A DNA stretch of 43,389 nt from Chromatiaceae bacterium (GTDB taxonomy: Bacteria; Pseudomonadota; Gammaproteobacteria; Chromatiales; Chromatiaceae): assembly GCA_028277905.1 (NCBI GenBank), contig JANQFI010000194.1:1-43389 (forward strand), read 5' to 3'. Below are positions 2-22,159 of the stretch, piece after piece (position 1 is the stretch's first letter; each line of letters opens with the position of its first letter). The translations under genes and the position numbers were made by a program. A model generated the notes under the pieces. That model was given only the letters and a program-made list of their open reading frames with translations. It was not told the origin of the DNA and did not search any database.

Positions 2-3000
2 GCTTCAATGAGGCCGCGGCGCAATGGCCGCGGAAATCAGGCGTCCCCGGCGAAGTAGTCGCCGAGCGCCTAGCTTCAATGAGGCCGCGGCGCAATGGCC
101 GCGGAAATACAGTCACAAATTTATTACGCCACGCCTCTCCCCCCGCTTCAATGAGGCCGCGGCGCAATGGCCGCGGAAATGGACCTTTCGTCGCGGCGCT
201 GGAACCGCAGCCTCTAGCTTCAATGAGGCCGCGGCGCAATGGCCGCGGAAATTGGAGCTGGTGCGCGGCATCCCGCGGGTGCCGCCGCAGCTTCAATGAG
301 GCCGCGGCGCAATGGCCGCGGAAATATGTGCACGAGGCCGCCGAGCAGCTCGGCTTCCGCGCTTCAATGAGGCCGCGGCGCAATGGCCGCGGAAATATAT
401 GGAACCTTATGGTCAGGTGTAGCTCTGATTGAGCTTCAATGAGGCCGCGGCGCAATGGCCGGGGAAATATTGTGCCACTGGCGGATTTCGGGGAACACAG
501 AGAAGGCTTCAATGAGGCCGCGGCGCAATGGCCGCGGAAATATACTTATCGTAGAATTCTGCAACAGCGCCAGCATGCTTCAATGAGGCCGCGGCGCAAT
601 GGCCGCGGAAATCTACGACCGCGTGTTGTGGCGCACGACGTATCAGGAGCTTCAATGAGGCCGCGGCGCAATGGCCGCGGAAATCAGGCGGAGCATATAA
701 GGAGGCGCGTGCGCGCGTAGGCTTCAATGAGGCCGCGGCGCAATGGCCGCGGAAATTGGGGTGCAAACGGTGGGAGAGTGAGGGCTATCCACTGCTTCAA
801 TGAGGCCGCGGCGCAATGGCCGCGGAAATAGGTCGAGACCGAGACCGAGACCGAGACCGGGATAGACTAGCTTCAATGAGGCCGCGGCGCAATGGCCGCG
901 GAAATCCCGGGGGATCGCTATCTCCAACCCCCGTCCAGGGGGCTTCAATGAGGCCGCGGCGCAATGGCCGCGGAAATAGGCTGCCGCCAAGGCCGGGCGA
1001 GACCTCCCGACTCAGCTTCAATGAGGCCGCGGCGCAATGGCCGCGGAAATGCGCCTTGGCACTCCCCAGCCTAGGAGACACAAAATGCTTCAATGAGGCC
1101 GCGGCGCAATGGCCGCGGAAATCGTTGAGTGCCCGCGCCTTGGCACTCCCTAACCAGGGCTTCAATGAGGCCGCGGCGCAATGGCCGCGGAAATTGCGAG
1201 TTCCAGCGCAGCTACACTCTCGGAAAACTGCTTCAATGAGGCCGCGGCGCAATGGCCGCGGAAATCTATTGTCACCGCCAGGCCATGACCTACCGCCTCC
1301 CGCTTCAATGAGGCCGCGGCGCAATGGCCGCGGAAATTCCCTTCCACAATCAACCACCTGCTCTACTTCGCCACGCTTCAATGAGGCCGCGGCGCAATGG
1401 CCGCGGAAATAGGATGACCTGCCTGATGTAGCCTTCCTTGGCTTCGGGCTTCAATGAGGCCGCGGCGCAGTGGCCGCGGAAATAGGCGCGTATCCATCCA
1501 TCCCAGCACCGTGGGTGTTGCTTCAATGAGGCCGCGGCGCAATGGCCGCGGAAATAGATGCGGCAGAAATTCAGCGCCACAGGCTGTGGTGCTTCAATGA
1601 GGCCGCGGCGCAATGGCCGCGGAAATCTTCAACGAACGCCAACTAACAGAGCTGGTCCAGGCGCTTCAATGAGGCCGCGGCGCAATGGCCGCGGAAATTC
1701 TACGGAATGGGGCGAAGGTTTTTGGGCACCTCGTTGCTTCAATGAGGCCGCGGCGCAATGGCCGCGGAAATATCGACGGCTCAACCCGACACTGAGCCCG
1801 CACTGCCGCTTCAATGAGGCCGCGGCGCAATGGCCGCGGAAATCCGGCGACGGGTAGGAGGTGAGAAATGAATAGCGGCGCTTCAATGAGGCCGCGGCGC
1901 AATGGCCGCGGAAATACACAGACGTTCAAGCAATTACGGCTGCTCGTCTTGGCTTCAATGAGGCCGCGGCGCAATGGCCGCGGAAATCCAGGCAAGTGCT
2001 TGTTTTGCAAGGGAGCCGAGGAAAGCTTCAATGAGGCCGCGGCGCAATGGCCGCGGAAATGGCTCAGCTTGCTCGCTGCGCGTCGGCTCGGCAATCGCTT
2101 CAATGAGGCCGCGGCGCAATGGCCGCGGAAATCACGGAAGTATGTAGGCACCTCGGCATTGAGATCGAGCTTCAATGAGGCCGCGGCGCAATGGCCGCGG
2201 AAATAAGGCGCCTGAGAAAGGGCAGAACGTTACCGCTGAGCTTCAATGAGGCCGCGGCGCAATGGCCGCGGAAATCTCTCACCCGCTGCCATACATGTGA
2301 AAAAACATCACGCTTCAATGAGGCCGCGGCGCAATGGCCGCGGAAATACGCTCGCGGAGAAACTGTTCGTGGCTGTTCGTGGAGCTTCAATGAGGCCGCG
2401 GCGCAATGGCCGCGGAAATCCTCCTCTTCCCAGGAGTCCGCGAACTCGCGGACCTGCTTCAATGAGGCCGCGGCGCAATGGCCGCGGAAATTGTCTCTAC
2501 ATATCCACCAGCTCCGAGCATCGACTTGCTTCAATGAGGCCGCGGCGCAATGGCCGCGGAAATCCCCACGGTTCTACGAACAAAAGGAACGTGGGTTCCT
2601 GCTTCAATGAGGCCGCGGCGCAATGGCCGCGGAAATAGCGCAGGTGCGAAACGCCATGGTGGCCGCGTTTGCGCTTCAATGAGGCCGCGGCGCAATGGCC
2701 GCGGAAATGCCGATCTTGGGATCGACAGCGTGCGGGTCCAGACGATGCTTCAATGAGGCCGCGGCGCAATGGCCGCGGAAATATCCGTGCAGCTAACACT
2801 AGCTAGCAGATTTCCTCACGCTTCAATGAGGCCGCGGCGCAATGGCCGCGGAAATTGTGAGGAAACCCACGAACTAACATGTGTTCCTGTGGCTTCAATG
2901 AGGCCGCGGCGCAATGGCCGCGGAAATCGTGGTGGTGGGGGGTGGTCATAGTCTTCTCCTGCCCTGCTTCAATGAGGCCGCGGCGCAATGGCCGCGGAAA

Positions 3001-6000
3001 TCGGCGCGGACCCAGGAAGAACAGCAGATTGCCGATGCGCTTCAATGAGGCCGCGGCGCAATGGCCGCGGAAATGCATGCGTTCCAGCATGGGCGGGCAA
3101 GGTTGGCTGAAGCTTCAATGAGGCCGCGGCGCAATGGCCGCGGAAATATCGCATTGCGCGATATGTTGTGGCGCGCGGAGGTTGCTTCAATGAGGCCGCG
3201 GCGCAATGGCCGCGGAAATCCAGGAGGGAGGCGATCGGGTCGTCGCCGCCCCGGTGCTTCAATGAGGCCGCGGCGCAATGGCCGCGGAAATTAGCCGACG
3301 ACATTCCTGACGAGCGGGCCGAGCCGGCTTCAATGAGGCCGCGGCGCAATGGCCGCGGAAATGCAGCGCATCGCTAAATACTCAGCTTAGACCCACTAGC
3401 TTCAATGAGGCCGCGGCGCAATGGCCGCGGAAATTTCTGGCTTGTCCTATCCCATGTCGCGGTTGCCCGCGCTTCAATGAGGCCGCGGCGCAATGGCCGC
3501 GGAAATGGCTGAGCTACGCCGAGTCAAAACTTGGACCGCCATGCTTCAATGAGGCCGCGGCGCAATGGCCGCGGAAATGGGGATGCCGGGTCGCCCGTGC
3601 AAGCTAACAACAGGCTTCAATGAGGCCGCGGCGCAATGGCCGCGGAAATCTGAAGCCGCCGCCGGAACCGTCGCTGAAGCCGCCGCTGCTTCAATGAGGC
3701 CGCGGCGCAATGGCCGCGGAAATCACCATCATCCTTTTTTCGCGAGCGTCTACTACCAGTGCTTCAATGAGGCCGCGGCGCAATGGCCGCGGAAATAACG
3801 CTGAAAGCTGGTGCGACGGTGTACAACACCAGGCTTCAATGAGGCCGCGGCGCAATGGCCGCGGAAATTTGCATAATTGATGTTTTTTCGCGCGGTCGGC
3901 AAGTGCTTCAATGAGGCCGCGGCGCAATGGCCGCGGAAATCGGTGGGACAAGGAGAAACGACGATTCTTCTATCAGGCTTCAATGAGGCCGCGGCGCAAT
4001 GGCCGCGGAAATGTGCAGGGGCCAGACCCACGTTACAAAAAAGGCACGGCTTCAATGAGGCCGCGGCGCAATGGCCGCGGAAATCGCGAGGCGCTTGTGG
4101 GGATGGACGCCCCAGCTAGGGCTTCAATGAGGCCGCGGCGCAATGGCCGCGGAAATGAAGCAGTGACTACGTACAAACGATCCAAAACACTGCTTCAATG
4201 AGGCCGCGGCGCAATGGCCGCGGAAATGGTCTCGGGGCGCTGTTGCGTTGGAATACGGAGCAGCTTCAATGAGGCCGCGGCGCAATGGCCGCGGAAATGC
4301 AGTTGCCCGAGATGTTCGCGCACGAAATTCCCAACGCTTCAATGAGGCCGCGGCGCAATGGCCGCGGAAATCGCTTCCTCTTCCGTGAGGAAGATGGCTG
4401 GGCGGCTGCTTCAATGAGGCCGCGGCGCAATGGCCGCGGAAATCTGACTTTAGTCGGCGACTCGACTCCCATCGACTCGCTTCAATGAGGCCGCGGCGCA
4501 ATGGCCGCGGAAATTTGCCCTTGGGGAGCTTTCAGCACGCTCACAAGTCCGCTTCAATGAGGCCGCGGCGCAATGGCCGCGGAAATTCACGCCCTTCGAC
4601 GATGCACGACAGGCCTTGTGGTAGCTTCAATGAGGCCGCGGCGCAATGGCCGCGGAAATGTGGGCAGGTACCCGCATGATAATCTCCGTGAAAATGCTTC
4701 AATGAGGCCGCGGCGCAATGGCCGCGGAAATGCATGCATTCATTCACGGGCGCGCGACGCTCGCGGAGGCTTCAATGAGGCCGCGGCGCAATGGCCGCGG
4801 AAATTCTGAGGATCGTGCGCACCGGCCCTCTCACACAGACGCTTCAATGAGGCCGCGGCGCAATGGCCGCGGAAATCAGCTTGGTTGTCGGTTCAGCCTG
4901 TGCAGCACTCGCTAGGCTTCAATGAGGCCGCGGCGCAATGGCCGCGGAAATAAAGGGGTAATCGATCGCCGCTTGTGCAGCGGCAAAGGCTTCAATGAGG
5001 CCGCGGCGCAATGGCCGCGGAAATCGCAAAAGCGATAAGGAAAGCGCCCGAAAAAGGGCAGCTTCAATGAGGCCGCGGCGCAATGGCCGCGGAAATTCAA
5101 CCGCGGTTACTGGCCGATGCGAGAAACAGGTTAGGCTTCAATGAGGCCGCGGCGCAATGGCCGCGGAAATGTCAAGGGCATTGGTCCCGTTAAGCGGGCG
5201 TCATGGGCTTCAATGAGGCCGCGGCGCAATGGCCGCGGAAATGCATGCATTCATTCACGGGCGCGCAACGTTGGCTGAAGCTTCAATGAGGCCGCGGCGC
5301 AATGGCCGCGGAAATATCGAGCTACCATCCCTTGCGCTCTCAATGGCGCCGCTTCAATGAGGCCGCGGCGCAATGGCCGCGGAAATGTTGAACAAGGGCA
5401 TCAGGATCTCATCAGCCTCTCGCGGCTTCAATGAGGCCGCGGCGCAATGGCCGCGGAAATTACAACGGGATGCAGTACTGCACCCTGCGAGGGACCGCTT
5501 CAATGAGGCCGCGGCGCAATGGCCGCGGAAATGGAGCTGCTGGTCGAGATTGCGGCCTGGCCAGGCACCGCTTCAATGAGGCCGCGGCGCAATGGCCGCG
5601 GAAATGATATTGGGGTGGACTCACCCCCGCGGATCGTTATGCTTCAATGAGGCCGCGGCGCAATGGCCGCGGAAATCACCAAGAAGGCGGCCGTTGCAGC
5701 GGCCGTCGGTTTGCTTCAATGAGGCCGCGGCGCAATGGCCGCGGAAATGTTGTAAGAGAACCCCTATGCAAAACAAGCACTTGGCTTCAATGAGGCCGCG
5801 GCGCAATGGCCGCGGAAATGGGCATTGCCGAAAGGTGCTGCGAGGCATCGCAGCACGCTTCAATGAGGCCGCGGCGCAATGGCCGCGGAAATGGGTAGCA
5901 CAGTCCGTGCGGCACGCAGCGGACAAGGCTTCAATGAGGCCGCGGCGCAATGGCCGCGGAAATCCGCCGTCAGTGTGGCTTCACCACAACCTGTGGCGCT

Positions 6001-9000
6001 GCTTCAATGAGGCCGCGGCGCAATGGCCGCGGAAATAGCGAGGAATCCCGTGGGGTGCCGACGGTGGGACAAAGCTTCAATGAGGCCGCGGCGCAATGGC
6101 CGCGGAAATCGAGGCAGAACTGATTGAACTGGAGTTTGAGGAGAGAGCTTCAATGAGGCCGCGGCGCAATGGCCGCGGAAATGAGAAAACCATGTACGTC
6201 AGTGCTAGTACCCCAGACGCTTCAATGAGGCCGCGGCGCAATGGCCGCGGAAATCTCGGACTGTCCGAGATTCCCTTCTCAACCGGTGGAGCTTCAATGA
6301 GGCCGCGGCGCAATGGCCGCGGAAATCCTTTGGGCTCGGCGGATCCTAAGAGGTCTCGCCAAGGCTTCAATGAGGCCGCGGCGCAATGGCCGCGGAAATC
6401 TACGACCGCGTGTTGTGGCGCACGACGTATTAGGAGCTTCAATGAGGCCGCGGCGCAATGGCCGCGGAAATGCGCCTTGGCACTCCCTAACTTAGGAGAC
6501 GCAAGATGGCTTCAATGAGGCCGCGGCGCAATGGCCGCGGAAATGTCGAGGTTACCCAGCGCCGTGGCTAGAGCGCAAACGCTTCAATGAGGCCGCGGCG
6601 CAATGGCCGCGGAAATCAACCGGCAGCGCCCACCTCAACAAGATGAGGTTCCCGCTTCAATGAGGCCGCGGCGCAATGGCCGCGGAAATCGTCTCGTCAT
6701 CATAGCCGCGCTCATCGCCCATCAGGCTTCAATGAGGCCGCGGCGCAATGGCCGCGGAAATGCTGGGATACCTTAGCTGATGTCCCTCCGAACGGAGAGC
6801 TTCAATGAGGCCGCGGCGCAATGGCCGCGGAAATGCACCCGCTGGCTGGGCTAGGCGGCTGAGCCGCTGCGCTTCAATGAGGCCGCGGCGCAATGGCCGC
6901 GGAAATCCGCTACATGGGGCCATGTCTACCCCACTGAGTTCCGCTTCAATGAGGCCGCGGCGCAATGGCCGCGGAAATCCAGGAGGCCACCACTATGACC
7001 ACATCCCTGACTTCGCTTCAATGAGGCCGCGGCGCAATGGCCGCGGAAATCACCGAGCCCAAGCCGATGCTAGTCGCCCACAACATGCTTCAATGAGGCC
7101 GCGGCGCAATGGCCGCGGAAATCCGGCGACGGGTAGGAGGTGAGGAATGAATAGCGGCGCTTCAATGAGGCCGCGGCGCAATGGCCGCGGAAATAGCGCG
7201 CGGCCTATGGGCGAACCACCCATGATCTGCGCTTCAATGAGGCCGCGGCGCAATGGCCGCGGAAATCGGATCTCAGCCTGGTGTTCTGGCCGGCGGCCTT
7301 CCGGCTTCAATGAGGCCGCGGCGCAATGGCCGCGGAAATGACGGAACGGAGGTAGTGCCATGCCCACGCAGTTGCGCTTCAATGAGGCCGCGGCGCAATG
7401 GCCGCGGAAATAGGCCCGCGATGAGTGCCCGCGCCTTGGCACTCCTGCTTCAATGAGGCCGCGGCGCAATGGCCGCGGAAATCCCCCAGCCCTGACATCT
7501 TCACATCTTGCCTATTGGCTTCAATGAGGCCGCGGCGCAATGGCCGCGGAAATTGCTCGATGCCCGAGTTGGTTGACCTGGTGTGGGCCAGCTTCAATGA
7601 GGCCGCGGCGCAATGGCCGCGGAAATTGTTGTCGGTGGAAGGTCCACGCATTCGTCAGTGCTGCTTCAATGAGGCCGCGGCGCAATGGCCGCGGAAATCC
7701 AATCCACCTAGCGCGGTAATCTTGAGTCAGTCCAGAGCTTCAATGAGGCCGCGGCGCAATGGCCGCGGAAATGTGAGGACCAGGGGCTCAGGCATCGTTG
7801 ATCGCCGCGCTTCAATGAGGCCGCGGCGCAATGGCCGCGGAAATACCTGGACCAACCCGCCTCATCGTCGGCGGGCTGGTGCTTCAATGAGGCCGCGGCG
7901 CAATGGCCGCGGAAATTGGGTAGAAGTAGAGAACGCAAACGGGTACACCGCATGGCTTCAATGAGGCCGCGGCGCAATGGCCGCGGAAATACCGAGAACT
8001 GCTCCAGCTCCAAGGCAAACCGTCGCTGCTTCAATGAGGCCGCGGCGCAATGGCCGCGGAAATCTCCCCTCTATGTAAGTAGCGAATCGCCGCCACCCGG
8101 CTTCAATGAGGCCGCGGCGCAATGGCCGCGGAAATCTCGACGTCTTCGGATGGACCGAAGAGACACCTGAGCTTCAATGAGGCCGCGGCGCAATGGCCGC
8201 GGAAATGGAGCTTTTCTCTCTTATACATATACAAGTAAGTATGCTTCAATGAGGCCGCGGCGCAATGGCCGCGGAAATCGGGCACTTTTGTTATTAAGGA
8301 TAATCGTCGTGGTCGCTTCAATGAGGCCGCGGCGCAATGGCCGCGGAAATCGGTCTACGACGACACATTCCGAGAGCACCACATTTCGCTTCAATGAGGC
8401 CGCGGCGCAATGGCCGCGGAAATGCAAGGCATGAAGATGTCAGGGCTGGGGGATGGACGCTTCAATGAGGCCGCGGCGCAATGGCCGCGGAAATAACGGC
8501 AGCGTCACCAGCGGGATCTGGTTGATGTTGCTTCAATGAGGCCGCGGCGCAATGGCCGCGGAAATAGCGAGGAGCCCGTCTGGGTGTAAACGGTGGGAAC
8601 GCTTCAATGAGGCCGCGGCGCAATGGCCGCGGAAATTATCCAACTGGAGTTCCATATTGCGTCTCCTAAGTCGCTTCAATGAGGCCGCGGCGCAATGGCC
8701 GCGGAAATCCTCACCAAGGACGGGGAGGCGGCGTGGGCTTGGCTGCTTCAATGAGGCCGCGGCGCAATGGCCGCGGAAATGCCACCGAGACGGTGGATGT
8801 TAGGCTCCGGCTCCGGCGCTTCAATGAGGCCGCGGCGCAATGGCCGCGGAAATACAAGCCCCGTTCGGAGTGACAATAAAAATGGAAGTGCTTCAATGAG
8901 GCCGCGGCGCAATGGCCGCGGAAATGCCAGGGTGCACGTTGCCGAGGTCTCGCCGCCCCTCAGCTTCAATGAGGCCGCGGCGCAATGGCCGCGGAAATGC

Positions 9001-11017
9001 CGACACGCTCCGGCGAGAGCGATAGATAGGTGATGCTTCAATGAGGCCGCGGCGCAATGGCCGCGGAAATCGGCACCAGCTTGAGCGGCTGCCGCTCCTC
9101 GTCGGTGCTTCAATGAGGCCGCGGCGCAATGGCCGCGGAAATCACCGGGTCGTGGCCGCCACTGCCGCCGTCGTAGTGCTTCAATGAGGCCGCGGCGCAA
9201 TGGCCGCGGAAATCCGGCGGGCCACGGTCATGGCTCGGCGGCAGGACCGGCTTCAATGAGGCCGCGGCGCAATGGCCGCGGAAATCGCGGCGTCACGCCG
9301 ACCACCCCCTATCGGTTCCGCGAGCTTCAATGAGGCCGCGGCGCAATGGCCGCGGAAATACCCTTGAGCTGTTAGCGCGTTTTTGCCCAAAAAGTGCTTC
9401 AATGAGGCCGCGGCGCAATGGCCGCGGAAATGCCGCGTTGCACGACGCTCCCGGCTGGACGGAGACCTGCTTCAATGAGGCCGCGGCGCAATGGCCGCGG
9501 AAATCGTGCTGCTCCACGTGGCCGCGGTCGCGCAGGTAGTGCTTCAATGAGGCCGCGGCGCAATGGCCGCGGAAATGGGAAAGCGGCACGCGTGCCGCTG
9601 CCGCCGCTGCTTGCTTCAATGAGGCCGCGGCGCAATGGCCGCGGAAATACCGCACCAATTGCAGTCTCGGCTTCGGTCATGTTGCTTCAATGAGGCCGCG
9701 GCGCAATGGCCGCGGAAATGATTTGGTCCGAGTGCCGCGGGGCCTCCTCGATCTCGCTTCAATGAGGCCGCGGCGCAATGGCCGCGGAAATGCCGGCGTC
9801 GCCGGCGTCGATCAGCGCGCGCGGGTCGCTTCAATGAGGCCGCGGCGCAATGGCCGCGGAAATGCAGGTCATCGACCCGGAGACCGTCGATGTCGGCCAG
9901 CTTCAATGAGGCCGCGGCGCAATGGCCGCGGAAATCCGGCGGCAGTGCACCAGTGAATACAAGCTGGAGCCGCTTCAATGAGGCCGCGGCGCAATGGCCG
10001 CGGAAATCGCTCGTGCGCTTGCTCGCGCCCTCGCGGCACCAGGGCTTCAATGAGGCCGCGGCGCAATGGCCGCGGAAATGGCCCGCACGCCAACCGCACG
10101 CTGTTTGACCGGCTGCTTCAATGAGGCCGCGGCGCAATGGCCGCGGAAATGCAGATACCATAGGGTACAATGCCGTTATCTACACCGCTTCAATGAGGCC
10201 GCGGCGCAATGGCCGCGGAAATTGGTGCAATTGGGTGCAACGGTGAACCTCGGCAACTAGCTTCAATGAGGCCGCGGCGCAATGGCCGCGGAAATGATCT
10301 ATGAGGAGCATGGCCACAGTGTCGAGTTCGTGCTTCAATGAGGCCGCGGCGCAATGGCCGCGGAAATCAAGCTTGGCCTGGCCACCCACGCCAAGCAGCT
10401 CATGGCTTCAATGAGGCCGCGGCGCAATGGCCGCGGAAATGGCAACAAGTTCTACGAGCTTGCCAGCGGCAAAAGCGCTTCAATGAGGCCGCGGCGCAAT
10501 GGCCGCGGAAATGATGGACCGGTGCATCGCCGCCCGCGCCGGCGGGCTGCTTCAATGAGGCTGCGGCGCAATGGCCGCGGAAATAGTATTCGTGTGCGCT
10601 GTACACCGGTTCCATCGACGGGCTTCAATGAGGCCGCGGCGCAATGGCCGCGGAAATCCCGGCGGAAGCACCGTCGTACAGGTTGACCTTCTCGCTTCAA
10701 TGAGGCCGCGGCGCAATGGCCGCGGAAATGAACGATTTTGCCCTTCGGTCCATTCCGGTAGATTGGCTTCAATGAGGCCGCGGCGCAATGGCCGCGGAAA
10801 TGCATCGGCGACCGAGCGGCCGAGTACAGCCCGTTGGCTTCAATGAGGCCGCGGCGCAATGGCCGCGGAAATCGAAGTGCTGGAGCGCAACGGCTACGCC
10901 AAGCGCGGGCTTCAATGAGGCCGCGGCGCAATGGCCGCGGAAATCGATGATGTAGGAGTCCGCGCTGCCGGTCAGCTCCAAGCTTCAATGAGGCCGCGGC
11001 GCAATGGCCGCGGAAAT
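2..11017 (-). CRISPR. Type I-G CRISPR array, 153 repeats / 152 spacers in window
   Basis: A 36-bp repeat recurs every 71-76 bp. On the + strand it begins GCTTCAATGA and ends GCGGAAAT. I counted 153 copies by walking the sequence, the first at 2-37 and the last at 10982-11017, so there are 152 spacers, mostly 35-37 bp and the longest 40 bp at 830-869. Only three repeats differ, each by one base: C30G in the copy at 433, A23G at 1448 and C14T at 10549. Each repeat can fold a 7-bp stem (CCGCGGC/GCCGCGG) with a 6-nt loop. Read on the minus strand it ends ATTGAAGC, the usual form of an 8-nt crRNA 5' handle, so transcription is right to left from the leader beside cas2. The oldest spacers are at the left and the array continues beyond base 1. 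ORF-track entries here are translations of the repeat and are not genes. The count could be off by one. Confidence 0.98.
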
Positions 11018-13727: not shown

Positions 13728-15431
13728 CTACCTGTCTTCGTCTACGGCCCTGAACAGGCCGAGTCCGAAGTGGCTGCCGTAGCCGAGGCAGATCGGCCCC
13801 TGTACAGGCTTGGCGAAGCGCAGTCGCAGCGGAGAGCCGAAGTTCACCGGAGGTGCGGGGCCGTTGCCCCGCACTCGTATGAAATGCCTTAGACGATTCA
13901 GTTCGACGTCAGCCGCGGCGGGCTGTTCACCTGAACCGGATTCTCCTGGCGCGAGCAGCCGGATATCGGCAACATGCCCAAGATGGGCCATCGGCTCAAT
14001 GCCCACGTCTGTAGCGCATCGCCGGACCATGAGCTCCGCCCGGATCTGCCCATCGAGACTATTCTTGCCGCGCGGTTTCAGGTAGCGTGGAGCAACGAAC
14101 GGCGTCCAACTCACCCATTCACGAGCGCCCTCGCTCGGGCCGAGCAGCGCGCCGACCCGTCGGCCCAGCTCATCTGGCAGGCGGCGAAGGTCCTCAAGCC
14201 TTCCCGCGGCCTCCAGCGCGACTTTCAGCTCCCCGACGCCGCCTTTCGTGTACGTGCCGCGCACGGCACGGATAGCCTTCTGCGCATCCTGATCCAGCCC
14301 CATGCGCGCCCAGATGAGGATGTGCTCGATGTGACCGTCGCCGTCCAGGTCGAGCGGCAGAATGTGGGCGTGCTCATGTGAGCCGGTTAGAGGCTTGCCA
14401 TTTACGTCGCATCCGGACAGCACCCGTGAATAGCCGGTGAACCGCTTGACGGCCAGTCCCAACTGCTTGTGCAGCATCTCGGCCTGCGGAAGGGTTCGCG
14501 TCACCGGCGGCAGGGCATGGTCGTTGCCGCTGTCGGTTGCCAGCGACAGCAGCATGCATTCTACGGGTGCCACCCGCTGGGACGCGGAGCGCGGGCGTGG
14601 CGAGGACGGTTCTAACAGGTCAACCGGACGCCAGTAGAAGACTCGGCGACTGCCCGGCGGTTGGCTCCAGCCGTACTGGCGCAGCCAGCTGGTGTCCGCT
14701 TGCAGGCAGGCGAGCAGGTCGGGTGGGTAGGGCATCAACGCCTTGGCCTGTTTCTCGCGCAGGGCCTTGGTGAGCCGTTTACTAGGTGGCGGTTGGAGCG
14801 GCGCGAGGGCCGCGGCAACCGCTGTCTCGCGCCAGCGGTCGTAATCCGTGGGCGCTTGAGGAGCCAACACGGCCACCTGCTCCCAACCGGTCCCAGGTGG
14901 TGCCAAATCCTGCTCTGCCACGCAATTCGGCACTGGGATCTCGTCATCGGGCGTGGCTAAGCGGGCTTCGATCCAGCTTTCAGACCGGCCGAGGTAACCT
15001 AGCCGCGCGACGAGCTCTGCCAATAGGGCGCTTTCATCAGTGGTCAGTACAAGATCCCAGATCACAGCGAGGGTGGCATCGTCGAGTCGGGCCCAGGTGT
15101 CAAAAACCAGGCTGGTGCGCTCACGGCCGCGGTCGAGGCTCGCCAGCGGCATGTAGTGGCGCGAATGTGTGCTTAGCCCTTCGGGCAGCCAATAGCTCGG
15201 CAGGGACGCCGACAGCTTGAGTATCAAATCGCGAGTGAGGGCGGGTGGCCGACTGGCCCATGGCGTGTCGAGGCCTGCCTCCCAGTCGAGCGTGTTGTAG
15301 CCTGCTGCGAGCAGCGCTCGCAGCAGGCGCCAGGGTGAGGGCGGCCATTCGACTTGACCTTCGTTGACGTGGTGGTCCGGCGGGGTGGCGTGATAGCGCC
15401 CCGCCGGGAAGCGGACAAGTATTGCGACCAC
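13728..15431 (-). CDS. csb2: Csb2 (GSU0054 family), fused Cas5-Cas6 of type I-G
   Basis: The 567-residue protein starts MVAILVRFPAGRYHATPP and has the family signature EWPPSPWRLLRALLA at about 29-43. Near its end is the glycine-rich loop GYGSHFGLGLF, typical of Cas6-type RAMP proteins. In characterised I-G systems Csb2 combines Cas5 (crRNA 5' end binding and capping of the backbone) with Cas6 (cleavage of the pre-crRNA at the repeat hairpin), and no separate cas6 exists in this locus. The repeat here has a stable 7-bp stem suited to such cleavage. The start codon lies 3 bp after the csb1 stop, so the two are translationally linked. Domain borders are approximate, and I did not identify the catalytic residues. 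Confidence 0.92.
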   Translation of the reverse strand: MVAILVRFPAGRYHATPPDHHVNEGQVEWPPSPWRLLRALLAAGYNTLDWEAGLDTPWASRPPALTRDLILKLSASLPSYWLPEGLSTHSRHYMPLASLDRGRERTSLVFDTWARLDDATLAVIWDLVLTTDESALLAELVARLGYLGRSESWIEARLATPDDEIPVPNCVAEQDLAPPGTGWEQVAVLAPQAPTDYDRWRETAVAAALAPLQPPPSKRLTKALREKQAKALMPYPPDLLACLQADTSWLRQYGWSQPPGSRRVFYWRPVDLLEPSSPRPRSASQRVAPVECMLLSLATDSGNDHALPPVTRTLPQAEMLHKQLGLAVKRFTGYSRVLSGCDVNGKPLTGSHEHAHILPLDLDGDGHIEHILIWARMGLDQDAQKAIRAVRGTYTKGGVGELKVALEAAGRLEDLRRLPDELGRRVGALLGPSEGAREWVSWTPFVAPRYLKPRGKNSLDGQIRAELMVRRCATDVGIEPMAHLGHVADIRLLAPGESGSGEQPAAADVELNRLRHFIRVRGNGPAPPVNFGSPLRLRFAKPVQGPICLGYGSHFGLGLFRAVDEDR

Positions 15432-16442: not shown

Positions 16443-18737
16443 TCAGTCCTCCGTGGTGGCCTCGTTCCGAGCCGGATCGAGGCGGAAAAGAAAGCGGGTT
16501 GCGGTACGCTCGTCGATCGGAAAGGCAAGCGCTGCGGCCCACCGCCGGGCCGTCGATGCCGGTAGCGCGGCGGCGCGCACCGCGGTGCGAATGCCGCTTG
16601 CGCGCAGGCGCCGCAGTGCGATGTCGACGGCGCTGGCAGCATCGCCAGACGCCAGGCGGCGGAAGACGGCGGGATCGCTGCGTATATCGAGCACATTCGA
16701 TGCTCCGCGACGGGCCGGCGGCAGTAGGGCGAGGCGCACCACGAGCCAGGCGTCGTCGGGGATTTCTCGATCAGGCGGCGGCTCGACGGCTGACGGGGAT
16801 TCTCGCCATTGGCGTCGATCAATGGCCATCAGGGCGCGAGCGAGGGCCAGGGTATAGTCCAGGTCAACGGCGCCCGCGATCAGGGCTGCGAGATCCGCCG
16901 CCTGGGCGGAAACACCGAAGCCGGGTTGGAGGGGCAAACGGCGCTGACCGCGCTGCGCGCCCTCTACGAGGCGTCGTGCTACGAGGGCAATCGCATCGGC
17001 TTCGCCGCCGCGCCCCGCCATGACCACCTCGGGTCCGGTCAGCAGTTGGGTATTGCCCATGGTCCCCGACTGGGCGAAACGGTCGATTTGTCGACGGTCG
17101 AGAGGCAGCCAATGGCGGCGCAGGCTGTTCCACCAGCGCGCATCCGCACCTTCGAACGTGCCCTGTTGAAGCGCGAGCGCCAGGGCAAGGCGCAAGGCCG
17201 GCTTGCCGTCGTCCGCGGCTGCGATCCAATCTGGCCGGAGTGGCGGAATGGGACCAGCCTTGAATCCTGTGCCGGAAACCATGGCGCGCTCGATCGCTGC
17301 CAGCCCGAGGAGCACACGTTGCCAGCGGCACGGCTCGTCGGGATGCTGGCTGAGCGCCAGCAGGACATCACCGAGTTGGCGCTCCGCAATTGTCAACCGG
17401 GCCGGGGCATGTTGCGTCCGGGTCTCGCGTCGGAGCCGCGCGAGCCAAGCGTCCAGATCGTCCAGGCAACTGAGGCTGGCCACCGCCCGGTTCGGTACGC
17501 TGAAGCGTCCCAAGGGTACGGCAAGATTGGATTGTCCGTTGCGCTCGATGTACCCGTAACGCTGGAAAGCTCCGATTCCACGTGCCGTGCCGAGTCTGGC
17601 GATGGCGCGGGCCAGGTCCAGCGGTTCCCGGGCCGAGCGGGCGCCGAGTTGGGCGCGGCCTTCAGCGAGGAGGCGCTTCAACTCGTCGAGTCGCAGCGGA
17701 CGGTCCCAGAGCGGCATCCATTGCTCGCCGCGAGGGCTCTCGTCCGAGTCGGCGGCGCTACCGTAACCGGCCCCACGGGCCGATAGCGTGAAGGGTGCTG
17801 CGGCGCGCACGGCTTGGCTTTCACCCAGTCGCCGGGTCGCGTGTGCAGCAAAAGGAATCACGCCTTCCAGCATCAGGATGAAATCCACCGGGTTGATCAT
17901 GCTGTCGCCTTGAGGGCCATTGGCATTGTTTGCACCGCCAGCGCCAAAGGGCAGGAACTGACCGATCGGTGCCTGGTGCCGATACGCGGTGCTCGGGCGT
18001 GACCAGAGCGCAGCGCGCAGCCATTGCTCGGCGGGCGCACGCGGCACTCCGATGTGGGATTCCAAGTCGAAGATGTCGCCCAGGCGCTGCAGGAAGTTGT
18101 TGGTGAAGTCCAGCTTGCCGTCGGCACCACCTGTGCCGAGCAAGGCCGGATAGGTCGCGTTACCCTCCTCCGTCAGGACCAACGCCACGTCGATCCAATC
18201 CCGGTGTGCGCCGCGCCAGGTGAGCCGTAGGTTCGGAATCAGCTCGGCCTTGAGCTTCTTGAAGTGGCGCTCTGCCGCGGCGAGTCGCGCCTTGTATTCA
18301 GGTGCCTGGCGCAGGGCGTCGCGCTGGGCACGAGAGAGGCCCTTGACCTTGGTCTCATCTTTGATGAGACGGACGGCCTGATCGGCGTCCGCGATGTCCT
18401 CGAGCAGTGTCCGTGCCGCACCGATCCCAGTTCTTAGATTCGCAAAACGCTCTGCCTCGGAGTCCATGATCGGGTCAAGGCCTCGATCCTTGGTCGCGAA
18501 GAAACCCGAGCCACGGTTCCAGGGCGACAACATCGGCGTTGGCGCGTACCGGTGCAGGAAGAACTGCTCCAGCTGTTCGGCATCGAGCGAGGTCGCCAAG
18601 CCGAACCGCTCACTATTCCACCATCCCCGCGCCTCGGGATCAGCCTGCTCTGCAACGAGCCGCAGGACGCCGATGGCCTTCAGGTAGTGGGCAAGGGGCC
18701 TGGGTGCGCAGCCGTCGAAATGGTGAATATGGATCAT
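16443..18737 (-). CDS. csx17: Csx17 (Cas8g), large subunit of type I-G Cascade
   Basis: The 764-residue protein begins with the family signature HHFDGCAPRPLAHYLKAIGV and continues with LRLVAEQADP. It is the large subunit expected in type I-G, where it takes the Cas8 role: PAM recognition, R-loop stabilisation and Cas3 recruitment. I recognise it by the N-terminal motif, length and operon position; no catalytic site is expected. The ATG overlaps the cas3 stop by ATGA (18734-18737), so translation is coupled to whatever reads the end of the long cas3 frame, including its Fic segment. Confidence 0.92.
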   Translation of the reverse strand: MIHIHHFDGCAPRPLAHYLKAIGVLRLVAEQADPEARGWWNSERFGLATSLDAEQLEQFFLHRYAPTPMLSPWNRGSGFFATKDRGLDPIMDSEAERFANLRTGIGAARTLLEDIADADQAVRLIKDETKVKGLSRAQRDALRQAPEYKARLAAAERHFKKLKAELIPNLRLTWRGAHRDWIDVALVLTEEGNATYPALLGTGGADGKLDFTNNFLQRLGDIFDLESHIGVPRAPAEQWLRAALWSRPSTAYRHQAPIGQFLPFGAGGANNANGPQGDSMINPVDFILMLEGVIPFAAHATRRLGESQAVRAAAPFTLSARGAGYGSAADSDESPRGEQWMPLWDRPLRLDELKRLLAEGRAQLGARSAREPLDLARAIARLGTARGIGAFQRYGYIERNGQSNLAVPLGRFSVPNRAVASLSCLDDLDAWLARLRRETRTQHAPARLTIAERQLGDVLLALSQHPDEPCRWQRVLLGLAAIERAMVSGTGFKAGPIPPLRPDWIAAADDGKPALRLALALALQQGTFEGADARWWNSLRRHWLPLDRRQIDRFAQSGTMGNTQLLTGPEVVMAGRGGEADAIALVARRLVEGAQRGQRRLPLQPGFGVSAQAADLAALIAGAVDLDYTLALARALMAIDRRQWRESPSAVEPPPDREIPDDAWLVVRLALLPPARRGASNVLDIRSDPAVFRRLASGDAASAVDIALRRLRASGIRTAVRAAALPASTARRWAAALAFPIDERTATRFLFRLDPARNEATTED

Positions 18738-19291
18738 TGCCGGTCCTCTTCTGCGAAACGCTCGATCCAGATGTCTGCGAGCGGCTCCCAGTCGGTGCGG
18801 TCGGCCGCCTCGAGCGCGGCTAGGTAGCGGTCCGTGTCAGCCCCCGGAGCCGGGGTCGGGTCGATTGCCGGCAACCCGAGCCGCCGGAGCAGCTCGGCGA
18901 GCAGCAACCGTGTCGCGCGTCCATTGAAGTCTGCAAACGGGTGGATGCTGAGGAGGCGCCCTTCGGCGAAGGCGAGCAGCTCCGGGAGACAGGCGTCACC
19001 GGTAGCCGCAACTGCATCGATGCGCGCTTGGAGCTCCCGGCAGTAGTCTCGCATCAAGATCGGAACCTGAAAGCCTGGCGGTGCCTGGTGATGGCTGACT
19101 CGGACGTTGATGCGTCGCCATTGGCCGGCGATGTCCGGGATCAGATCGGCGCAAATCGCAGTATGCAGATCCCGGATGAGCGCTTCGTCCGGGAGACGGT
19201 CCGCATACTCGTCCAGTGCGATGGCCGCTTGCGTACGCTGGACGTTCCGCGCGAGGTGTGGGGCCAGCTCGATGCAGGTCAGTCGTCCAAG
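18734..19291 (-). other. Fic domain (AMP-transferase fold) at the 3' end of the cas3 frame
   Basis: About 185 residues show a complete Fic core. LIRDLHTAICADLIPDIAGQ is followed by a QVPILMRDYCRELQ segment and then HPFADFNGRATRLL at about 1073-1086 of the long frame. The canonical motif is HPFx(D/E)GNGRxxR. All positions match except one glycine, replaced by phenylalanine; the catalytic histidine, the acidic residue and both arginines are kept. Fic proteins usually transfer AMP from ATP to a target protein, and many are toxins held by an antitoxin. I see no in-frame ATG, GTG or TTG near the natural domain start, only CTG at 19282, inside the CTGA overlap with the antitoxin stop. It is therefore made as a Cas3 fusion, or by re-initiation at CTG, or by frameshifting. 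Confidence 0.85.
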
Positions 19292-22159
19292 CGTTGTATC
19301 GATAGACCGAGTGGCGCGAGGAGGCGCTCCAACTCGGCTTCGAGCATCCGTTCGTCCACCGGCTCCCCCTCGAATGCCATGCTCCGGGCGACCATCCGCG
19401 GGATCCGGCTCAGACTGATTCGGCGCTGCCGTTCCGGCGGCAGTTGTCTCCAGCGCCGGATGCACTCTTGCCAATGGGTCTCGGGCATGGGGCTTCTCCA
19501 GTAACGGGTCCAGGGTGTCGAGCCGCGAGGCGCGCTGGTCGGCGGCCCGCAACAGGGCTTCAAGCCAGGCCAGGGTGAATGGGCCGTAGCGCTCGAGTAG
19601 ACCGAGCACTCGGTCGGTCCAGCCGGCGCCGGTGGTCGGGCCGATGCCCGCCGCGGCGGGGCCGAGGTCGATCAGGGTTTCCGGCAGCTCGTGCACGGCG
19701 CCCTGCGCGTCCGCCAACGGCACCGGCGGCAGTCGCTCGCCGTCGCGGATGCCGCGGATGCGGAGCAGCCTGTCCTGGGCGGATTGATCGCCTTTGCCGG
19801 CGTGCCAGGCTAAGCGGAGCTTGCCGTGGTGGGTGCAGACCAAGTAGGCGAGCAGATCGAAATGGTGCGCCGTCAGATCCAGCACCTCCTGTTCCAGCGG
19901 CGAGGGCGGCTTGCGATCGGCGGTCAGCGACGGCTTCGACGGCGCGCCGATCGCGGAGAGCAGTTCCCGCCAGGAACCGAGCAGCGCCCCATGGTCCGGG
20001 TTGTGGCACCGCAGCACGCCGAACAGTGCCAGCGTGCTGGCCAGCTCGTGGCGCAAGCCGGGGCGCCGGCTGCCGTCGGGCATTCGGTACAAGGCTTGGC
20101 GCGACCGCCAAGCGGTGGCGGGCGCCTTGGCGAGGTCGTCCCGAGGGGCCCCCTCCGGGTCGCCGTCGATGGAGCCACGGAAGGCTGGGTGGACTTTGCC
20201 GGCGTCGTGCCAGCGCCCGCCCAGGTCGAACAGGTCGGCAAGACCCGCCACCAGGACCTCCGCGATGGCACGTGCAATCGCGCCGGTCTCTCGCCCGTGG
20301 CTGGCAATGGTCTTCCACGGGTACTCGGACAGGGTCTCATCGTCCAAGGCATCGTCGGCCAGCGCGTCCGCCGGGAGGGAAGGGCCCGAGACCGGCCGTA
20401 CGGGCTTGATGCTCTTCGGATCGAAGCCGCGCGTGGGGTCATAGCCACCGGTGTCGGCGGCGACGAGCACGATATTGCCGGGATACAGGTCGCGCCGGGT
20501 GGCCCACCGCCAGGCGCCGTCCTGCCAGTCCCAGACCCAGGCGCGCTTGCCTTTTGTGAGCCCCTCGGTCTTCTCGCAGAGCCACTGCCGTGCGCGCAGG
20601 AAGGGCACCGGGCAGAGTGCCTCCCGCGTCGGGCGGACACCGGGCTCCGGCGAGCGCCTCGGCTCGACCGCGTGCCAGAAGACGTAGAGGTCGCGCTCTT
20701 CGCCACTGCGGATGAAGCGGCTGATGTCCACATCGGCACCGGACAGGTCGGGCGTCGTATCGAAGAGCTCGTCCAATTCGTGCCGCAGCAGCAGCTGCCG
20801 CGGCTCGAACGGGTACAGCGCAGGAAGGAGCTCCCGGTGCCGCTCCTCGAGCAGGACCAGCGGCAACGGGCCGACATCTGCGCGACCCTCCGGCGCATCG
20901 GCGGCGAGCCTTTCCAGGGCGGTTTGTGCCGCGTCGAGCTCCTCTTGCAGGTAGGGCGCCGGGCTCTTCAGCGGGTCGAAGCGTACGACGGCGACATCGG
21001 CCTTGCCGCCCCAGCGGGCAGATCGCCCGAAGCGTTGGACCAGACTGGCCCAGGGGGCCAACTCGGTGACCAGGAGACCCGCGGAAATGTCGACGCCTGC
21101 CTCGATGATCTGTGTGCTGACGATGATCCGATCGGTACCTGGTGTGCATGCGCTGCGGTGCAGGAAGTCCTCGGTCCAGTTGGCACGCTCGTGGGGACGG
21201 AAGCGGCTGTGTATCAGTCGCAGATCGGTGGCAGCCATGGACTTGTCCTTGGACAGCGCCCTGCTCAGTGCCTGCCACAAATCAACCGCTCGATCTACGG
21301 TATTCAGCACCACCAGCGTCGGACCTGCCGCGCCTCGCCCACCGGCAAGGTGTCGTTCAAGCACCAAGGGTGCCAGCGCCTTCGCGTTCTTTGCCCAAAG
21401 CTGCTCACAGGGCTTAGCCACATCGTCCCAGAGTGGGCCCGTGCGCGCCTCGGGCGCAATCTCGGTTGCGGCGAGACCCGCAACGAGCGCCTGAGTGTCC
21501 GGGCTCTTGGCGAGCCATGCCGTCTGCAAGGTCGCGCTCATCCACCAGGTGACGGAGGGCCGCAGGGTGCGGCCGGCGGCACTATCCTCATCGCGGAAGG
21601 CCTGCAACTGCGCCGAGGTCGCGAGCCCGACGTCCATCAACTGAATCTCGTCCATGACCCATAGGCAGTCCTGGCTCAGCAGGCCGAAGTCCATCGGCCA
21701 GCGGGCGCGGGGCGCCGCGTAGCCGCGGTTCAGCGCTCGGGACAGCAACATGTCCTGCGTGCCGATGATCACGGCGCAGTGCTCGGGGTATTGGTGCCAA
21801 GGTCCGGCCTCGCTGCCGCCCATTAGCGCATGCACGCCGACCTTGCCGGTATGGCCGGCATTTCGGTCCCAAAGCAGATCGAGCCGCTCAAGCGCTGCCG
21901 ACAGCTCTGTTTGCGTCTGCTCCACCAGCACGCGCATGGGCAGGCACCAGATCAGTCGTCGCGGCCAGCCATTGTCGTTGCGCAGCAGCCGATGCCAGAT
22001 CCAGGCGGCGGCCACGCCATAGGTCTTGCCGAAGCCCGTGGGAATGCGGGCGGTGCGGTTGATACACTCTGGCTCATCCGCGAGTGATCGTTGCCAGTCC
22101 CGCGGTTCATGGCCGCCCGATAAGGTCCGAAAGGCATGGTCGTAACGCATCGGCTGCAT
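18734..22159 (-). CDS. cas3: Cas3 helicase-HD nuclease with C-terminal Fic domain
   Basis: The open frame is 1141 residues. The helicase comes first: Walker A IPTGFGKT at about 39-46, DEIQ box at 170-173, motif III SATL at 208-211, and motif VI QRFGRSAR at about 375-382. The HD nuclease follows, as is usual in type I-G: H621 in ASHGRE, RWHDAGK at 649-655 and CTHHGK at 775-780. Similarity to Cas3 ends near residue 890. Residues about 890-956 have low complexity and GC3 of only about 52%, and overlap a better coding frame (see 19279-19488). Residues about 957-1141 are a Fic domain. Cas3 unwinds and degrades the target after Cascade binding. The ATG at 22159 sits right after GAGG; the next in-frame ATG at 22150 has better spacing (9 nt). 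The upstream HIRAN gene ends 22 nt before. Confidence 0.93.
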   Translation of the reverse strand: MQPMRYDHAFRTLSGGHEPRDWQRSLADEPECINRTARIPTGFGKTYGVAAAWIWHRLLRNDNGWPRRLIWCLPMRVLVEQTQTELSAALERLDLLWDRNAGHTGKVGVHALMGGSEAGPWHQYPEHCAVIIGTQDMLLSRALNRGYAAPRARWPMDFGLLSQDCLWVMDEIQLMDVGLATSAQLQAFRDEDSAAGRTLRPSVTWWMSATLQTAWLAKSPDTQALVAGLAATEIAPEARTGPLWDDVAKPCEQLWAKNAKALAPLVLERHLAGGRGAAGPTLVVLNTVDRAVDLWQALSRALSKDKSMAATDLRLIHSRFRPHERANWTEDFLHRSACTPGTDRIIVSTQIIEAGVDISAGLLVTELAPWASLVQRFGRSARWGGKADVAVVRFDPLKSPAPYLQEELDAAQTALERLAADAPEGRADVGPLPLVLLEERHRELLPALYPFEPRQLLLRHELDELFDTTPDLSGADVDISRFIRSGEERDLYVFWHAVEPRRSPEPGVRPTREALCPVPFLRARQWLCEKTEGLTKGKRAWVWDWQDGAWRWATRRDLYPGNIVLVAADTGGYDPTRGFDPKSIKPVRPVSGPSLPADALADDALDDETLSEYPWKTIASHGRETGAIARAIAEVLVAGLADLFDLGGRWHDAGKVHPAFRGSIDGDPEGAPRDDLAKAPATAWRSRQALYRMPDGSRRPGLRHELASTLALFGVLRCHNPDHGALLGSWRELLSAIGAPSKPSLTADRKPPSPLEQEVLDLTAHHFDLLAYLVCTHHGKLRLAWHAGKGDQSAQDRLLRIRGIRDGERLPPVPLADAQGAVHELPETLIDLGPAAAGIGPTTGAGWTDRVLGLLERYGPFTLAWLEALLRAADQRASRLDTLDPLLEKPHARDPLARVHPALETTAAGTAAPNQSEPDPADGRPEHGIRGGAGGRTDARSRVGAPPRATRSIDTTLGRLTCIELAPHLARNVQRTQAAIALDEYADRLPDEALIRDLHTAICADLIPDIAGQWRRINVRVSHHQAPPGFQVPILMRDYCRELQARIDAVAATGDACLPELLAFAEGRLLSIHPFADFNGRATRLLLAELLRRLGLPAIDPTPAPGADTDRYLAALEAADRTDWEPLADIWIERFAEEDRQ
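19279..19488 (-). CDS. Candidate Fic antitoxin (VbhA-like) nested in the cas3 3' region
   Basis: This is a 69-residue ORF in a different frame from cas3, and part of the longer track ORF 19279-19563. Its ATG has GGAG 7 nt upstream. By my reading of the codons, GC3 is about 72%, against about 52% for the cas3 frame over the same bases, so this is the likelier coding frame. At residues 36-41 it has S-M-A-F-E-G, matching the (S/T)xxxE(G/N) motif with which class I Fic antitoxins block the ATP pocket. A charged helical stretch (EAELERLL) follows, as in VbhA (about 62 residues). The stop TGA (19281-19279) overlaps a CTG of the Fic frame as CTGA. Antitoxin upstream of and touching the Fic toxin is the standard order. 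Function is inferred from motif and position only. Confidence 0.7.
   Translation of the reverse strand: MPETHWQECIRRWRQLPPERQRRISLSRIPRMVARSMAFEGEPVDERMLEAELERLLAPLGLSIQRLDD

What the first reader, a model, noticed from the sequence alone, without database searches (positions are those of the whole stretch)
19279..19488. Nested antitoxin-like ORF with S-M-A-F-E-G motif between Cas3 and Fic
Seen: a 69-codon ORF in another frame starts with GGAG-N7-ATG inside the cas3 end and stops exactly where Fic begins. Hand-read GC3 is about 72%, against about 52% in the cas3 frame. Known: (S/T)xxxE(G/N) is the inhibitory motif of Fic antitoxins (VbhA, YhfG type), whose gene normally precedes and touches fic. 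Inference: the cas operon carries a full Fic toxin-antitoxin module with the antitoxin overprinted on cas3.
Basis: partly seen in the sequence, partly recalled or inferred. Interest (0 to 1): 0.92.

Follow-up and report, generated by a model that had tools for sequence, protein, structure and literature searches.

The report
Antitoxin gene hidden inside Cas3–Fic fusion
In a bacterial CRISPR immune system, the DNA-shredding protein Cas3 is joined in one chain to a Fic toxin-like enzyme, and the DNA for the connecting stretch is read a second time in another frame to make what looks like the toxin's own antidote; the same arrangement recurs in about 25 related loci, so it is real and not chance.

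Summary
ORF 19488-19279 (-) is 69 codons, ATG, GGAG-N7 ribosome site, stop TGA. It encodes a conserved small protein (SMAFEGEPV) found directly upstream of related Fic proteins in over 50 loci from several phyla. Base composition and substitution pattern mark it as the coding frame of that segment.

Main correction: cas3 and fic are not separate genes. They form one 1141-codon ORF of a type I-G CRISPR operon. The antitoxin is overprinted not on Cas3 proper but on the linker between the Cas3 and Fic domains: AlphaFold predicts disorder at residues 889-950; the antitoxin covers codons 891-959. The same layout occurs in 25 Cas3-Fic loci: same relative frame in all, no stop in the linker frame (5.8 open expected), and no standard start codon just before the Fic domain in those checked. 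Two loci extend the fusion to Cas3-Fic-Cas8g.

A model of a natural antitoxin-Fic fusion matches self-inhibited Fic proteins (human FICD) end to end, placing the SxxxE helix at the inhibitory-helix position. Best reading: a class-I-like Fic toxin tethered to Cas3, inhibited by an antitoxin from the same mRNA. Toxicity, inhibition and trigger are untested. I found no published description in the open-access library.

The parts
19279..19488 (-). Overprinted antitoxin ORF, 69 aa, MPETHWQECIRRWRQLPPERQRRISLSRIPRMVARSMAFEGEPVDERMLEAELERLLAPLGLSIQRLDD; S36, E40
   Evidence: conserved in 55 loci; coding frame of this segment
19489..19501 (-). Ribosome-binding site of the antitoxin, CTGGAGAAGCCCC upstream of ATG (GGAG-N7-ATG)
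   Evidence: a core of 4 or more bases (GGAG/AGGA type) precedes the antitoxin ATG in most of the fused loci
18734..22159 (-). Cas3g-Fic fusion, one ORF of 1141 aa
   Evidence: TIGR02621 704 bits, cut-off 400; PF02661 37.8 bits, cut-off 24; alignment of 16 fusions
19490..22159 (-). Cas3 part (helicase + C-terminal HD), residues 1-890; last predicted helix ends at 878
19310..19495 (-). Disordered inter-domain linker in the Cas3-Fic frame (residues 889-950), the stretch overprinted by the antitoxin
   Evidence: the only long stretch with pLDDT < 50; stop-free in 25 of 25 loci
18737..19315 (-). Fic domain, residues 949-1141; motif HPFADFNGRATR (H1073, R1081, R1084)
16443..18737 (-). cas8g (csx17); its ATG overlaps the end of cas3-fic
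   Evidence: TIGR04113 565 bits
15435..16439 (-). csb1/cas7g
13728..15431 (-). csb2 (cas5-cas6)
   Evidence: TIGR02165 142.5 bits
11786..13537 (-). cas4g-cas1g fusion
   Evidence: NF049935 807 bits
11277..11570 (-). cas2
   Evidence: PF09827 3.4e-18
2..11017 (.). CRISPR array, about 153 repeats (36-nt consensus GCTTCAATGAGGCCGCGGCGCAATGGCCGCGGAAAT), runs to the contig edge

Best explanation
The ORF is a genuine FicA-type antitoxin. It is translated from its own ribosome site inside the cas3-fic message, in the frame shifted by one base from Cas3-Fic, over the segment that in the other frame encodes only a flexible linker. The Fic domain is made solely as the C-terminal part of Cas3. The antitoxin binds the Fic domain in trans, and the E40 helix blocks the ATP site by pairing with the second motif arginine (R1084), keeping Cas3-bound Fic silent. 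Because both come from one mRNA, they are made together and neither can be lost alone. Most likely use (inferred, about 50%): a tethered fail-safe. If the antitoxin is degraded or not replenished during infection, or is displaced when Cas3 engages target, Fic modifies a cell or phage protein and stops growth. Shown here: conserved antitoxin frame, conserved open fusion, linker disorder, fold match. Inferred: translation, binding, inhibition, toxicity, trigger.
For: Conservation of the ORF and S-M-A-F-E in 55 loci, with ATG starts in nearly all. Changes fall mostly at antitoxin third positions: 18 of 30 between window and L028, 45% over all pairs of 17 fused loci; antitoxin-frame aa identity 0.88 vs 0.51 in the other frame for window/L028. 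GC-by-codon-position pattern switches to the antitoxin frame exactly here. In 25 Cas3-Fic loci the relative frame is always the same and the linker frame has no stop, against 5.8 expected open after synonymous shuffling; 12 representatives under 75% nt identity give a product of 10^-8.8; the third frame, as control, is open in 4 of 21 against about 5.8 expected. No ATG/GTG/TTG from 32 codons before to 3 after the conserved TR of Fic in 21 of 21 fused-type loci, whereas 14 stand-alone Fic genes start 9-13 codons before it. Cas3-Fic model: only long disordered stretch 889-950. Antitoxin-Fic natural fusion model (pLDDT 90, pTM 0.87) aligns at 1-250 with FICD 196-432, Z 21.7, and its Fic part with VbhT and EcFicT. 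In L121 the Fic domain is truncated and the antitoxin motif has decayed S to N.
Against: No expression, binding or toxicity data. The Fic motif has F where the published canonical AMPylase motif HxFx[D/E]GNGRxxR (PMC5033356) has G, in nearly all relatives, so AMPylation is not certain. The antitoxin matches no Pfam, NCBIfam, PADLOC or PDB sequence family. The residue-level pairing E40-R1084 was not measured; only the aligned range was available. The position after E is R, Q or S in some relatives. Openness of the linker could be partly inherited.
Confidence: 0.82

Rival explanations
1. Same parts, different purpose: an addiction module that punishes loss or silencing of the cas locus (in the manner of CRISPR-guarding toxin-antitoxin pairs), with no role in the response to infection.
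For: The tight overlap makes cas3, fic and antitoxin inseparable. The same antitoxin-Fic pair exists without cas genes in Verrucomicrobiota and Actinomycetota, also on conjugative Rhodococcus plasmids, as expected of a mobile addiction pair.
Against: Covalent tethering of the toxin to Cas3, twice extended to Cas8g, is not needed for addiction. Decayed Fic domains persist next to intact-looking cas genes (L121, L129), so the locus is not strictly held by the toxin.
Confidence: 0.3
2. Fic is not a toxin but a regulator: it modifies Cas3, Cas8g or another effector subunit, and the antitoxin sets when this happens. The unusual F in HPFxDFNGR reflects a changed reaction.
For: HPFxDFNGRxxR instead of the canonical GNGR in nearly all relatives (canonical motif from PMC5033356); fusion to Cas3 and to Cas8g puts the enzyme inside the effector complex.
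Against: The same motif occurs in stand-alone Fic proteins without any cas genes, so the F is not a CRISPR-specific change; a free antitoxin suits a harmful enzyme better.
Confidence: 0.15
3. No fusion protein of importance: Fic is translated on its own by re-initiation at the CTG that overlaps the antitoxin stop (CTGA), and the open linker frame is a by-product.
For: The antitoxin stop overlaps a Fic-frame CTG in the window and many relatives.
Against: The overlap is not conserved: the stop lies at +13, +25, +31 or +49 in other fused loci. Fic residues before the CTG (TR..T.LG) are conserved and form predicted strands. No stop in the linker frame in 25 of 25 loci.
Confidence: 0.1
4. The 69-codon ORF is a chance reading frame in GC-rich DNA.
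For: Alternative-frame ORFs of this length are common in this window.
Against: Conservation, codon-position pattern, GC pattern and occurrence as a separate, annotated gene beside Fic on Rhodococcus plasmids.
Confidence: 0.01

Closest known systems
Class I Fic toxin-antitoxin modules (VbhTA of Bartonella, EcFicTA/YhfG of E. coli, Fic-1-AntF of Pseudomonas)
   Same: Small protein encoded directly before Fic, [S/T]xxxE[G/N] motif at the end of a helix; Fic part aligns with VbhT, EcFicT and Fic-1 (Z 16.8-18.8).
   Different: Antitoxin nested in another frame inside the toxin's own ORF; toxin is a domain of Cas3; antitoxin matches no known antitoxin model; motif HPFxDFNGR instead of GNGR.
Class II Fic proteins (FICD/HYPE, SoFic)
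   Same: Rare natural antitoxin-Fic fusions in this family (L078, L055) have this layout; the L078 model matches FICD over its full length.
   Different: In the window the inhibitory helix is on a separate protein.
Mobile mystery protein B (TIGR02613) and PADLOC PDC-S04
   Same: Fic part scores 31 bits to TIGR02613 and 57.5 bits to PDC-S04. From memory, TIGR02613's own note mentions a CRISPR-associated region in Geobacter sulfurreducens.
   Different: Below TIGR02613's cut-off of 124.4; there the partner is a helix-turn-helix protein (from memory) and fic is a separate gene.
Type I-G (formerly I-U) CRISPR-Cas, e.g. Thioalkalivibrio sulfidiphilus (PMC9638904)
   Same: Same operon: cas3g, cas8g, cas7g/csb1, csb2, cas4g-cas1g, cas2; in Tsu Cas3 is a stable subunit bound through Cas8g.
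   Different: That paper mentions two toxin-antitoxin pairs between csb2 and cas4-1 but no Fic or Cas3 fusion.

Membership tests
Type I-G CRISPR-Cas | Cas3g, Cas8g/Csx17, Csb1/Cas7g, Csb2 and Cas4-Cas1 fusion above curated cut-offs, in one operon with an array | tested here: met
Fic domain family (PF02661) | Score over the Pfam gathering cut-off | tested here: met
   37.8 bits, cut-off 24
Canonical Fic AMPylase | Motif HxFx[D/E]GNGRxxR | tested here: inconclusive
   HPFADFNGRATR; every residue but the first G of GNGR is kept, that one is F in nearly all relatives
Class I Fic toxin-antitoxin module | Inhibition motif [S/T]xxxE[G/N] on a small separate protein | tested here: met
   SMAFEG, S36 and E40; S, M, E invariant in A2 (35 sequences)
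Class I Fic toxin-antitoxin module | Antitoxin gene immediately upstream of fic | tested here: met
   directly upstream of the Fic domain, but nested in the fusion ORF
Class I Fic toxin-antitoxin module | Antitoxin segment occupies the inhibitory-helix position on the Fic fold | tested here: met
   L078 natural fusion, residues 1-250 vs FICD 196-432, Z 21.7, rmsd 2.5, 212 aligned; by range only, residue pairs not seen
Class I Fic toxin-antitoxin module | Antitoxin binds and inhibits; Fic toxic without it | not testable with these tools
   needs expression and binding assays
Named antitoxin families (VbhA, YhfG) by sequence model | Match to a Pfam or NCBIfam model | tested here: not met
   no credible match among 35 members
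Overprinted gene pair | Both frames kept by selection: one conserved in residues, the other at least open | tested here: met
   antitoxin frame conserved; linker frame open in 25 of 25 but its residues no better conserved than the unused third frame (0.438 vs 0.432)

The most novel reading that the evidence does not exclude
A CRISPR effector nuclease carries a covalently tethered Fic toxin whose antidote is encoded by the same bases as the tether, so that interference and a growth-stopping backup are built from one mRNA and cannot be separated by mutation; target engagement or loss of antitoxin supply would switch the cell from DNA cutting to arrest.
Probability: 0.45. Interest if true: 0.93.

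Novelty: new variant of a known kind. Interest (0 to 1): 0.82.

Why it matters
It links adaptive immunity to a Fic toxin in a single polypeptide and gives a clear, bacterial, non-phage example of a functional gene hidden in another gene's linker. It makes the question of whether type I CRISPR systems carry a built-in growth-arrest arm directly testable in a system (type I-G) that can already be reconstituted. It also shows that small antitoxins can be missed by annotation: the fusion is a single Cas3 model hit, and the relative on Rhodococcus plasmids is listed only as a hypothetical protein.

Tried and rejected
Chance ORF: rejected by conservation and codon pattern, although length alone would not have sufficed. 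Two separate genes cas3 and fic: rejected, one ORF in 25 loci. Assembly or frameshift artefact in this one MAG: rejected, same layout in isolates Thiocapsa marina 5811 and T. roseopersicina DSM 217 and in many MAGs. Sequence search for known antitoxin families or PDB relatives of the antitoxin: nothing credible; profile A5 against PDB: nothing, because antitoxin rows dominated the profile. First attempt at a mixed alignment (A3) put antitoxin rows on the Fic domain and was discarded. Test for residue-level selection on the linker frame: identity 0.438, no better than the unused third frame 0.432, so no claim beyond openness. Antitoxin on plasmids with the window sequence: no match, but relatives lie beside Fic on Rhodococcus plasmids. 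Literature: no paper in the open library on Cas3-Fic or a nested antitoxin; subscription papers and preprints were not searchable.
Full report
Observation. On the minus strand the ORF 19488-19279 has ATG, 69 codons and TGA, with GGAG seven bases before the ATG. Its frame is shifted by one base from an ORF that runs without a break from 22159 to 18734. That long ORF is 1141 codons: Cas3g helicase and C-terminal HD (TIGR02621 704 bits, cut-off 400) followed by a Fic domain (PF02661 37.8 bits, cut-off 24). Downstream lie cas8g, csb1, csb2, cas4-cas1, cas2 and an array of about 153 repeats, a complete type I-G locus. So there is no separate fic gene, and the nested ORF lies in the fusion.

Is the nested ORF a gene? 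ORF length is not evidence in this GC-rich window. Conservation is. In the congener G005 (the same contig as L028, Thiohalocapsa) it is 78% identical. One scan of GTDB contigs with the Fic domain returned 73 loci, about 57 of them close relatives; 55 loci in my set have the small ORF with S-M-[AVR]-[FML]-E directly before Fic (my search pattern required S and E, so their invariance there is partly by construction, but W13, M37 and V44 are invariant in the 35-row alignment too). Between the window and L028, 18 of 30 substitutions are at antitoxin third positions, and the antitoxin frame is 88% identical in residues against 51% for the other frame; over all pairs of 17 fused loci 45% are third-position changes. 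GC by codon position shows the coding pattern in the antitoxin frame here (0.70/0.47/0.77) and not in the Cas3-Fic frame (GC3 0.48). On a Rhodococcus ruber plasmid the relatives are two separate annotated genes, a 63-residue hypothetical protein with SMAMEGEPVS and a Fic family protein.

Is the fusion real? I counted 25 loci where a Cas3 reading frame leads into the antitoxin segment and Fic (in three of them, L024, L121 and L129, Fic is broken or truncated). The antitoxin always has the same frame offset, and the Cas3-Fic frame has no stop over the overprinted part. Shuffling synonymous antitoxin codons with local codon usage predicts only 5.8 open frames; for 12 representatives under 75% nucleotide identity the product is 10^-8.8. 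Caveats: loci share ancestry, and loci were gathered by Cas3 adjacency and open frame, although I found no locus with cas3 directly upstream and a broken frame (L063 has cas3 about 690 nt away and unfused). The unused third frame behaves as expected by chance (4 open of 21, about 5.8 expected). In all 21 fused-type loci examined there is no ATG, GTG or TTG from 32 codons before to 3 codons after the conserved TR at the start of the Fic domain, whereas 14 stand-alone Fic genes start 9-13 codons before it (one of the 21, L072, has an open frame of 853 codons upstream without a detectable Cas3 match). The residues of the linker frame are not conserved beyond what the unused frame shows (0.438 vs 0.432), so selection there is for an open, not a specific, linker. 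AlphaFold of the window's whole Cas3-Fic (pLDDT 78.8) has one long disordered stretch, 889-950; the antitoxin spans codons 891-959. The antitoxin is thus written where the fusion protein needs nothing but length.

Two loci in different genomes go further: Cas3, Fic and Cas8g in one ORF, 1838 aa in L035 and 1885 aa in L122. Some modules are decaying: L121 has a truncated Fic and the antitoxin motif reads NMALEG, L129 has a frameshifted Fic, L024 an in-frame stop. In eight Verrucomicrobiota-type loci without the fusion, a Fic-frame ATG lies seven bases before the antitoxin ATG, so Fic could be made there with an N-terminal extension that overprints the antitoxin too.

How it probably works. In L078 and L055 antitoxin and Fic are in one frame. 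The L078 model (pLDDT 90, pTM 0.87) aligns over residues 1-250 with human FICD 196-432 (Z 21.7, rmsd 2.5, 212 residues), and its Fic part with VbhT, EcFicT and Fic-1. The motif helix (15-37) therefore falls in the range of FICD's inhibitory helix, whose glutamate is E234 (from memory); the tools gave ranges, not residue pairs. Published work on class I Fic proteins states that the inhibitory helix carries [S/T]xxxE[G/N] and that its glutamate pairs with the second motif arginine (PMC5033356). Applied here: E40 to R1084. That is inference. Whether Fic is an AMPylase is open, because the motif is HPFxDFNGRxxR, not GNGR. The PADLOC candidate defence family PDC-S04 matches the Fic part (3.4e-16), a hint of a defence role.

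Purpose. In type I-G, Cas3 is a stable effector subunit bound through Cas8g (PMC9638904), so the Fic domain rides on the effector. A tethered fail-safe, released when antitoxin supply stops or on target engagement, is my first choice (about half); addiction and regulation are the rivals. Nothing here separates them.

Evolution. On a Fic tree the fusion label needs six changes; fused forms dominate one Pseudomonadota-centred clade and occur in MAGs labelled Desulfocapsa and Edaphobacter, with stand-alone forms mainly in Verrucomicrobiota and Actinomycetota. In a sample of 369 genomes of the window's class about 20 carry Cas3g, and 9 of these loci show the antitoxin.

Novelty. Fic toxin-antitoxin pairs and type I-G are known; the Cas3-Fic fusion with its antitoxin in the linker was not found in the open library. 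That library lacks most subscription papers and all preprints.

Noticed in passing
L035:3325-8838 (+) and L122 minus strand (G230:C297): Cas3, Fic and Cas8g form a single ORF of 1838 and 1885 codons in two different genomes, with the antitoxin still overprinted between Cas3 and Fic.
   Followed up: partly
L056, L059, L060, L061, L062, L063, L064, L068 (upstream of fic): A Fic-frame ATG lies 7 nt before the antitoxin ATG and the frame is open through it, as if Fic were made with an extension that overprints the antitoxin, without fusion to Cas3. In L061 and L062 the chance of an open frame is under 1%.
   Followed up: partly
L078:5839-6588, L055:5761-6498: Antitoxin and Fic in one frame, a natural class-II-like fusion. 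L078 differs from its close relative L080 by a frame change; a sequencing error was not excluded.
   Followed up: partly
G000:C640 (L127): The window's genome holds a second I-G type Cas3, without a Fic motif in the part held, running to the contig end.
   Followed up: no
window 2-11017: Very long CRISPR array, about 153 repeats with nearly identical repeat units, cut by the contig edge.
   Followed up: no
L121 (G351) and L129 (G112): Decaying modules: truncated Fic with antitoxin motif changed to NMALEG, and a frameshifted Fic with intact antitoxin.
   Followed up: partly
L072: Fic frame open for 853 codons upstream with no detectable match to the window Cas3; nature unresolved.
   Followed up: no
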